Below are positions 23,105 to 25,544 of a DNA stretch of 64,000 nt, piece after piece; the stretch's first letter is position 1; every line of letters starts with the position of its first letter. The stretch is from Fusobacterium mortiferum (lineage in GTDB: Bacteria > Fusobacteriota > Fusobacteriia > Fusobacteriales > Fusobacteriaceae). Position numbers and translations under genes: made by a program. The notes beneath the pieces were generated by a model. The model worked only from the letters and a program-made list of their open reading frames with translations. It was not told where the DNA came from and made no database searches. The stretch is taken from positions 62,001-126,000 of the forward strand of contig NZ_JACSNP010000005.1 in assembly GCF_016900045.1 (NCBI RefSeq), given 5' to 3'.

Positions 23105-23133
23105 TTGACTATTTTATCAAAAAGCTTTACAAT
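23105..23133 (+). promoter_or_regulatory. promoter of the decarboxylase-arginase fusion gene
   Basis: TTGACT at 23105-23110 and TACAAT at 23128-23133 are separated by 17 bases, 63 bases before the start codon. Confidence 0.65.
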
Positions 23134-23195
23134 ACATCAGTACAAGAAAATTATATAACATTTAAATAAAAAAAACAATAATCAAAGGAGGTAAG

Positions 23196-25544
23196 ATGTC
23201 AAAGCTAGACCAAAGTAAAACTCCACTATTCTCTGCGTTAAAAGATGTATATGCAGGAAGAGATATACTTCCATTTCATGTACCTGGACATAAGAGAGGA
23301 AAAGGAGTAGATAAAGAATTTTATGATTTTATGGGGAATGGACCTTTTTCCATTGATGTTACAATATTTAAAATGGTAGACGGGTTACACCAACCAAAAA
23401 GTTGTATAAAGGAAGCTCAAGAATTAGCTGCTGACGCATATGGTGTAAAACAAAGTTTCTTTGCTGTAAATGGAACTTCAGGAGCTATTCAAGCAATGAT
23501 TATGTCTGTTGTAAAAGCAGGAGAAAAGATATTAGTACCTAGAAACGTACATAAATCAGTATCAGCTGGAATTATATTAAGTGGTTCTGAACCAATATAT
23601 ATGAATCCAGAAGTAGATGAGGAGTTAGGAATAGCCCACGGTGTAAGACCTCAAACTGTTGAGAATATGCTAAAACAACATCCTGATATAAAAGCTGTTT
23701 TAATAATCAACCCTACTTACTATGGAGTAGCTACAGATATTAAAAAGATAGCTGATATAGTCCATAGCTACGATATACCACTAATAGTAGACGAAGCTCA
23801 TGGACCACATTTACATTTCCATGATGATCTACCTGTTTCAGCTGTAGATGCAGGAGCAGATATTTGTACTCAAAGTACTCACAAAATAATTGGTGCTATG
23901 ACTCAAATGTCTCTTTTACATGTAAACTCAGATAGAGTAGACACAAATAGAGTAAAACAGATTTTAAGCTTACTACACACAACATCTCCATCATATCCTT
24001 TAATGGCGTCTCTAGACTGTGCTAGAAGACAGATAGCAACTGAGGGAACTGAATTATTAGATAAGGCTATAAAGCTTGCTAAACGTTTCAGAACTGAAGT
24101 TAATAGAATACCTGGGATGTCATGCTTTGGAGAGGAGATAGTAGGAAGAGAGGGAGTATTTGCCTTTGATCCTACCAAAATAACAATCACAGCTAAAGAA
24201 TTAGGACTTACAGGTTCAGAACTAGAAACTATACTTACAGAAGAGTATAATATTCAAATGGAGCTATCTGATTTTTATAACGTATTAGGATTAGTAACTA
24301 TTGGAGATACAGATGAAAGTATAGATAAACTTATAAGTGCTTTAAAAGATATAAGTGAAAGATACTATGGAAAAGGAAATAAATTAAAAAGAGAATTTTT
24401 AAAGATGCCACCTATTCCAGAGCAAGTATTAATACCGAGAGAGGCTTTCTATAGTGAAAAGAATAAGGTATTATTCTCTGAAAGTGAAGGAAAAATCTGT
24501 GGAGAAATGATAATGGCTTATCCACCAGGAATACCAGTAATTACTCCAGGAGAGAGAATTTCTGCAGAGATAATAGATTATATTAATGACTTAAGAGAGG
24601 CTGAGCTTCATGTACAAGGAATGGAAGATCCAGAGTTAGAGTATATTAATGTAATTGAAGAGGAAGACGCAATCTATCTATATACAGAGAAGATGAAGAG
24701 CAAGATGTTTGGTGTTCCAATGAACTTAGGAGCAAACAAAGCTGGAATCGAATTTGGAATAGATGTATTACGTGAAAACTATCCAGATACATTTGATGAA
24801 ATGGAAGTTATAGAGGTAGAAAAACAAAAAGAAAATTTCAATGAATGGAATTTAAAATATAAAAATACTATTTTAAATACTTGTGAAAAACTTGCTGTTT
24901 CTGTAAATGAAGCTGTAAGAGATGGATATAGACCAATAATAATTGGAGGAGACCATTCAATAGCTTTAGGAAGTATTTCAGGAGTGTCACTAGAAAAAGA
25001 GATTGGAGTAGTATGGATAGATGCTCATGGAGATATGAATACAGATGAGTCTACTATATCTGGAAATATCCATGGAATGCCACTAGCATTATTACAAGGT
25101 GCTGGGGACAGAGACCTAGTAAACTGCTTCTATGAAGGAGCAAAGATTGACAGCAAAAATGTAGTAATACTTGGTGCTAGAGATTTAGATTTTAAAGAGA
25201 GAGAAGTTATTGACCAATTAGGTGTTAAAGTAATATACCATGATGAAGTATTACAAAAAGGTTTAGATAGAATATTAGAAGAGATACAAGACTACTTAAA
25301 AGTAGATAATCTACATATAAGTTTTGACGTTGACTCTGTAAATCCAGAGTTAGCTCCAGGGGTAAGTACACCTGTAAGAAACGGATTTACAACTGATGAA
25401 ATATTCCAAACTTTCAAATTCTTATTTAAAAACTACTTTGTAACATCAGTTGATATAGTAGAGTTTAACCCTGTTAATGATAAAAATAACAAAACTCTTG
25501 ACTTTGTAAATGAATTAACTGAGTATGTAGTTAATCCAGACTAA
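23196..25544 (+). CDS. fused Orn/Lys/Arg decarboxylase - arginase-family enzyme
   Basis: One uninterrupted 782-aa frame holds two enzymes. Residues 1 to about 490 are a fold-type I PLP decarboxylase of the Bacillus SpeA kind: LPFHVPGHKRGKG, NGTSGAIQAM, VDEAHGPHLHFH and STHKIIGAMTQ with the PLP lysine at 230, then the C-terminal domain MAYPPGIPVITPGE. Residues about 505-782 are a ureohydrolase: GVPMNLGANKAG, GGDHS (586), DAHGDMN (609-613), and SFDVDS (Asp711, Asp713), which keep the manganese ligands. SGNIHG (622-627) resembles arginase rather than agmatinase. Either order of action converts arginine to putrescine, urea and CO2. AAAGGAGGTAAG precedes ATG 23196. Confidence 0.93.
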   Translation: MSKLDQSKTPLFSALKDVYAGRDILPFHVPGHKRGKGVDKEFYDFMGNGPFSIDVTIFKMVDGLHQPKSCIKEAQELAADAYGVKQSFFAVNGTSGAIQAMIMSVVKAGEKILVPRNVHKSVSAGIILSGSEPIYMNPEVDEELGIAHGVRPQTVENMLKQHPDIKAVLIINPTYYGVATDIKKIADIVHSYDIPLIVDEAHGPHLHFHDDLPVSAVDAGADICTQSTHKIIGAMTQMSLLHVNSDRVDTNRVKQILSLLHTTSPSYPLMASLDCARRQIATEGTELLDKAIKLAKRFRTEVNRIPGMSCFGEEIVGREGVFAFDPTKITITAKELGLTGSELETILTEEYNIQMELSDFYNVLGLVTIGDTDESIDKLISALKDISERYYGKGNKLKREFLKMPPIPEQVLIPREAFYSEKNKVLFSESEGKICGEMIMAYPPGIPVITPGERISAEIIDYINDLREAELHVQGMEDPELEYINVIEEEDAIYLYTEKMKSKMFGVPMNLGANKAGIEFGIDVLRENYPDTFDEMEVIEVEKQKENFNEWNLKYKNTILNTCEKLAVSVNEAVRDGYRPIIIGGDHSIALGSISGVSLEKEIGVVWIDAHGDMNTDESTISGNIHGMPLALLQGAGDRDLVNCFYEGAKIDSKNVVILGARDLDFKEREVIDQLGVKVIYHDEVLQKGLDRILEEIQDYLKVDNLHISFDVDSVNPELAPGVSTPVRNGFTTDEIFQTFKFLFKNYFVTSVDIVEFNPVNDKNNKTLDFVNELTEYVVNPD

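What the first reader, a model, noticed from the sequence alone, without database searches (positions are those of the whole stretch)
23196..25544. One polypeptide joins a SpeA-type decarboxylase to an arginase-like ureohydrolase
The frame is continuous with no internal start, and both halves keep their catalytic residues: PLP lysine 230 in the first, and the Mn-binding GGDHS, DAHGD and SFDVD motifs in the second. The decarboxylase half resembles Bacillus SpeA (arginine decarboxylase). The C-terminal half keeps SGN-x-HG at 622-627, the positions that in arginases contact the alpha-amino and carboxyl groups, which favours arginase over agmatinase. So the fusion could run arginine-agmatine-putrescine, or arginine-ornithine-putrescine if the decarboxylase takes ornithine. 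The pairing of an apparent arginine decarboxylase with an apparent arginase is biochemically puzzling, because each would consume the other's substrate.
Basis: partly seen in the sequence, partly recalled or inferred. Interest (0 to 1): 0.65.

Follow-up and report, generated by a model that had tools for sequence, protein, structure and literature searches.

The report
Known arginase-ornithine decarboxylase fusion enzyme
This gene makes one protein that most likely turns arginine into ornithine and then into putrescine; the same two-part enzyme has already been described across the Fusobacterium family, so the finding is real but ordinary, apart from new evidence that its arginase half has been lost several times.

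Summary
Window 23196-25544 (+) is one open frame of 782 aa: an ancestral-type (SpeA-like) PLP decarboxylase (residues 9-477) fused to an arginase domain (504-775), with both active sites complete. The likely order is arginine -> ornithine + urea (C-terminal half), then ornithine -> putrescine + CO2 (N-terminal half). This is ODA (ornithine decarboxylase/arginase), published from Fusobacteriaceae in 2021-2025, with a crystal structure of the arginase half (8d27). In the window's genome it is the only arginase-family gene and the only gene of its decarboxylase family. No arginine deiminase, agmatine deiminase or true ornithine carbamoyltransferase was found, while speD-speE (spermidine synthesis) is present. 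I found the fusion in 50 of 61 Fusobacteriaceae genomes and in 0 of 37 other Fusobacteriota. Modestly new: the arginase half was inactivated at least three separate times (the known oral clade plus two others), was deleted once, and apparently split off once as a free arginase. The window's copy is of the intact type. Its arginase activity is predicted, not assayed.

The parts
23196..25544 (+). oda: ornithine decarboxylase/arginase fusion, 782 aa
   Evidence: 50 genomes with the same fusion
23184..23195 (+). Ribosome-binding site AAAGGAGGTAAG
   Evidence: Sequence read directly
23105..23133 (+). Possible sigma-70-like promoter (TTGACT-17-TACAAT); the number of matches in the region is at chance level
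   Evidence: 15 found, 13.4 expected
23196..24665 (+). N-terminal ornithine decarboxylase half, residues 1-490, ancestral AAT-fold type, PLP lysine K230
23883..23885 (+). Codon of PLP lysine K230 (STHK), invariant in all rows
24693..24695 (+). M500, the position equivalent to the start codon of the free-standing arginase relative in G013; junction of the fusion
24693..25541 (+). C-terminal arginase half, residues 500-782
25020..25034 (+). DAHGD (609-613), Mn ligands; serine or glycine at 609 in the inactivated lineages
25059..25076 (+). SGNIHG (622-627), arginase amino-acid-binding loop
25326..25334 (+). DVD (711-713), Mn ligands; asparagine at 713 in the oral clade

Best explanation
The gene encodes the Fusobacteriaceae enzyme ODA with an intact arginase half. 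The C-terminal di-manganese arginase hydrolyses L-arginine to urea and L-ornithine. The N-terminal PLP enzyme decarboxylates the ornithine to putrescine, which SpeD/SpeE elsewhere in the genome extend to spermidine. The fusion lets a cell that appears to lack ornithine carbamoyltransferase and other arginine-to-ornithine routes make putrescine directly from imported arginine. Shown: gene structure, complete catalytic residues, ODC-clade placement, single-copy status in the genome, presence of speD/speE. Shown by others on homologues: ODC activity. Inferred: arginase activity of this copy, reaction order in the cell, any channelling.
For: Domains and motifs. Six Mn ligands (H587, D609, H611, D613, D711, D713) and the arginase substrate residues (N615, T620, S622, N624, H626, D665, E668, E756) are kept. 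Arginase model TIGR01229 scores 215 bits against 79 for agmatinase TIGR01230. Best sequence and fold match is 8d27, the arginase domain of F. nucleatum ODA, TM 0.94. The decarboxylase tree places the window with fused copies and the 490-aa free ODC type, apart from fusobacterial speE-linked ADCs. F. nucleatum fusion shown to be an ODC, and the F. necrophorum enzyme prefers ornithine 309-fold over arginine (PMC8503589). Putrescine is the essential product in F. nucleatum (PMC12826042). Own genome: one PF00491, one PF01276, no arcA, no agmatine deiminase, only PyrB-level OTC score, speD and speE present; the PF02784 hit is lysA.
Against: The arginase score is just under TIGR01229's curated cut-off (215.1 against 227.6). 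No assay of an intact fused arginase was found in the literature available here, and five other genomes carry fused arginases with broken metal sites, so the half is dispensable in some lineages. The genome is a draft of 283 contigs (99.95% complete).
Confidence: 0.87

Rival explanations
1. Arginine decarboxylase plus agmatinase: arginine -> agmatine -> putrescine + urea within one chain.
For: Distant sequence similarity of the N-terminal half to Bacillus SpeA. In other Fusobacteriota an ADC-type gene sits with speE and an agmatinase gene (e.g. G055 C16, by coordinates).
Against: The window's decarboxylase is outside that ADC clade (45-46% identity; tree). The C-terminal half keeps arginase residues and scores far lower as agmatinase (79 bits, cut-off 174), whereas a real speE-linked agmatinase scores 282. 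Homologues are ODCs (PMC8503589).
Confidence: 0.05
2. Only the ODC half works; the arginase half is an inactive structural domain, as reported for F. nucleatum.
For: Published for oral species (PMC8503589, PMC12826042). Dead copies are still under purifying selection (rough dN/dS about 0.04-0.13).
Against: All residues lost in the dead copies are intact here and in 45 of 50 genomes. No other arginase gene exists in this genome. Amino-acid-changing differences in the arginase half do not exceed those of the ODC half by much in close relatives (ratio 0.8-1.1), against up to 2.0 in the oral clade.
Confidence: 0.07
3. Artefact: two adjacent genes joined by a sequencing or assembly error.
For: None beyond the draft state of the genome.
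Against: The same uninterrupted frame occurs in 50 genomes, including finished ones.
Confidence: 0.005

Closest known systems
Ornithine decarboxylase/arginase (ODA, gene oda) of Fusobacterium nucleatum; Li et al. 2021 (PMC8503589), Mothersole et al. 2022 (doi 10.1021/acs.biochem.2c00197), J Bacteriol 2025 (PMC12826042), PDB 8d27
   Same: Domain order, length (782-783 aa), monocistronic layout and catalytic residues of the ODC half; 75-77% identity over the full length
   Different: F. nucleatum-type copies have Ser609 and Asn713 in place of Mn-binding aspartates and are reported inactive as arginase; the window copy keeps both aspartates
Free ancestral-form ODC of Fusobacterium necrophorum (WP_005954404, 490 aa, PMC8503589)
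   Same: ODC half; genomes with a 490-aa free form (L036, L037) are 77% identical to the window and nest inside the fused clade
   Different: No arginase half, which was lost secondarily
Bacillus RocF arginases (1cev, 6nfp)
   Same: Fold, Mn ligands, arginine-binding residues
   Different: Free-standing; the fused domain is slightly below the TIGR01229 cut-off
SpeA-type arginine decarboxylases (Bacillus SpeA, Psychrilyobacter ADC)
   Same: Same AAT-fold ancestral decarboxylase superfamily
   Different: Different clade; in Fusobacteriota they accompany speE and an agmatinase gene instead of an arginase

Membership tests
Fusobacteriaceae ODA (ornithine decarboxylase/arginase) | N-terminal ancestral OKR decarboxylase fused in frame to a C-terminal arginase domain, about 780 aa | tested here: met
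Fusobacteriaceae ODA (ornithine decarboxylase/arginase) | Common descent with characterised fusions | tested here: met
   75% identity to the F. vincentii copy; both domain trees; 8d27 best hit
Fusobacteriaceae ODA (ornithine decarboxylase/arginase) | Ornithine decarboxylase activity | not testable with these tools
   Inferred from clade and published homologues (PMC8503589)
Arginase (RocF type) | Six Mn-binding His/Asp residues | tested here: met
   H587, D609, H611, D613, D711, D713
Arginase (RocF type) | Residues for the alpha-amino and alpha-carboxyl groups (N130, S137, H141, D183, E277 of human arginase I) | tested here: met
   N615, S622, H626, D665, E756 (human numbering from own knowledge)
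Arginase (RocF type) | Curated TIGR01229 score cut-off (227.6 bits) | tested here: not met
   215.1 bits, narrowly below; a divergent arginase, not called a RocF equivalog
Agmatinase (SpeB) | TIGR01230 cut-off 174.3 bits | tested here: not met
   79.4 bits
Ancestral AAT-fold arginine decarboxylase (SpeA) | Groups with ADCs and not with ODCs | tested here: not met
   Tree; 45-46% identity to the speE-linked type

The most novel reading that the evidence does not exclude
The physical joining matters apart from arginase chemistry. The arginase half has been catalytically lost at least three times but is usually kept as an intact, constrained domain, so it may act as an assembly or regulatory part of the ODC, while intact copies such as this one pass ornithine between sites.
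Probability: 0.25. Interest if true: 0.45.

Novelty: already known. Interest (0 to 1): 0.22.

Why it matters
Putrescine made by this enzyme is essential for F. nucleatum and is reported to promote biofilm formation by oral neighbours and growth of cancer cells (PMC12826042). Copies with a working arginase would free the cell from ornithine supplied by neighbours, so the split between intact and broken copies sorts Fusobacteriaceae into predicted arginine users and ornithine-dependent cross-feeders. The repeated losses mapped here make that prediction testable.

Tried and rejected
Arginine decarboxylase/agmatinase reading: rejected on tree and profile scores. Frameshift artefact: rejected. Internal start giving a free arginase: M500 is in frame but has only a weak upstream ribosome-binding sequence. 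A riboswitch or other known RNA upstream: none at Rfam gathering thresholds. Promoter and terminator scans were at chance level. The fusion outside Fusobacteriota: the plasmid collection gave full-length matches only in F. vincentii and Ilyobacter polytropus out of 939 matching records; the single genome-contig scan found only Fusobacteriaceae but used six short patterns, so it is insensitive. The full text of Mothersole 2022 is not held. The AlphaFold model (mean pLDDT 75, pTM 0.59, residues 1-67 poor) confirms both folds but is too uncertain to measure a tunnel or a domain interface. dN/dS values are rough because synonymous sites are near saturation.

Full report
WHAT IS THERE. The window holds a single open frame from ATG 23196 to a stop at 25542-25544, 782 aa, behind a strong ribosome-binding site (AAAGGAGGTAAG). 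Pfam assigns the Orn/Lys/Arg decarboxylase major domain to residues 9-373, its C-terminal domain to 400-477 and the arginase family to 504-775. The gene stands alone between a divergent DJ-1-like gene and a membrane-protein gene (YitT-like, own judgement), matching the monocistronic layout reported for oda in F. nucleatum (PMC12826042).

IT IS A PUBLISHED ENZYME. Li et al. 2021 (PMC8503589) describe an ancestral-form ornithine decarboxylase fused to an arginase homologue in F. [quoted passage not shown] They judged the F. nucleatum arginase half inactive because two Mn-binding aspartates are Ser and Asn. Mothersole et al. 2022 named it ornithine decarboxylase/arginase (cited in PMC12826042; full text not held); its title reports loss of arginase function in oral-associated species. 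PDB entry 8d27 is that arginase domain and is the window protein's best match by sequence and by fold. The 2025 J Bacteriol paper shows the gene is essential in F. nucleatum through putrescine.

THE PUZZLE AND ITS SOLUTION. A tree of decarboxylase domains puts the window among the fused copies together with a 490-aa free form. That free form has the length of the assayed F. necrophorum enzyme, which prefers ornithine 309-fold over arginine (PMC8503589). The speE-linked decarboxylases of Fusobacteriota form other branches, at 45-46% identity; in several genomes they lie next to speE and an agmatinase gene, and a Psychrilyobacter member was assayed as ADC (PMC8503589). So there are two alternative arrangements in the phylum: ADC with agmatinase as separate genes, or ODC with arginase fused. 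In the window protein the halves act in series.

THIS COPY HAS A COMPLETE ARGINASE SITE. All six metal ligands and the substrate residues are kept. It scores 215 bits against the arginase model and 79 against the agmatinase model, although 215 is just under the curated arginase cut-off of 227.6.

GENOME CONTEXT. In the window's own genome the fusion is the only arginase-family gene and the only gene of its decarboxylase family. No arginine deiminase or agmatine deiminase was found. The best ornithine-carbamoyltransferase-family match is 109 bits, the level of the second, presumably aspartate carbamoyltransferase, copy in other genomes, against about 165-211 bits for the higher-scoring presumed true OTCs (inference from the score gap). 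Argininosuccinate synthase is present. The alanine-racemase-fold decarboxylase is lysA. speD and speE are adjacent on another contig. The fused arginase is therefore the only recognised route from arginine to ornithine, and the fused ODC the only recognised route to putrescine, with spermidine as the likely end product. The species is not identified.

DISTRIBUTION AND HISTORY. The fusion occurs in 50 of 61 genomes of this family (51 copies) and in none of 37 other Fusobacteriota genomes. Both domain trees show the same deepest split among fused copies, consistent with one ancient fusion. Metal ligands are intact in 45 of the 50 genomes. Broken sites appear in three separate places: the oral clade G016-G018 (D609S, D713N, the pattern of 8d27; a named F. 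vincentii copy shows the same); G050 (D609G plus H626N), whose sister G051 is intact; and G044 (changes at 609, 611, 613, 626, 665 and 713). In G037 and G038 the arginase half is absent, no remnant lies downstream, and the free ODC nests inside the fused clade as sister of the oral clade (100/98 support). In G013 a free 289-aa arginase nests inside the fused clade (82/91 support, long branch) and starts at the residue equivalent to M500, with no decarboxylase half found in that draft genome. Two of the three oral-clade genomes carry a separate RocF-type arginase (L048, L049; the L048 protein scores 313 bits), so a dead fused arginase does not by itself mean that the cell lacks arginase.

SELECTION. 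Within the oral clade the dead arginase half changes amino acids up to twice as fast as the ODC half, while in the window's relatives the ratio is 0.8-1.1; dN/dS of the dead half still stays near 0.04-0.13. The values are rough because synonymous sites are near saturation. They fit a non-catalytic role in the oral species, a possibility raised in PMC12826042, but do not prove it.

VERDICT. What I add is the intact status of this copy, its position as sole recognised putrescine route in its genome, and parallel losses beyond the published oral clade. Arginase activity of intact copies and any channelling remain untested.

Noticed in passing
L055 (G050:C37:4580-6925): Fused arginase with D609G and H626N, an inactivation independent of the oral clade; sister genome G051 (L033) is intact.
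   Followed up: partly
L069:3001-5340 (G044): Fused arginase with at least six active-site changes, yet the full-length frame is kept; the genome also has a speD/speE/agmatinase/metK cluster (L079).
   Followed up: partly
L047:2491-3336 (-), G013: Free-standing arginase that nests inside the fused clade, apparently split off from the fusion; no ODC half found in this draft genome.
   Followed up: partly
L048:2614-3549 and L049 (G018, G016): Oral-clade genomes with a dead fused arginase carry a separate RocF-type arginase with intact ligands; G017 has none.
   Followed up: partly
L078:3547-4764 (own genome): Argininosuccinate synthase present although no true ornithine carbamoyltransferase was recognised; the source of its citrulline is unclear.
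   Followed up: no
L043 (G055), L044 (G053), L046 (G054): Free ureohydrolases 45-48% identical to the fused domain with SGHIHG in place of SGNIHG; substrate unknown.
   Followed up: no
L080 (NZ_CP084075.1): A 2.1-Mb record labelled as a plasmid of Fusobacterium vincentii is probably the chromosome.
   Followed up: no
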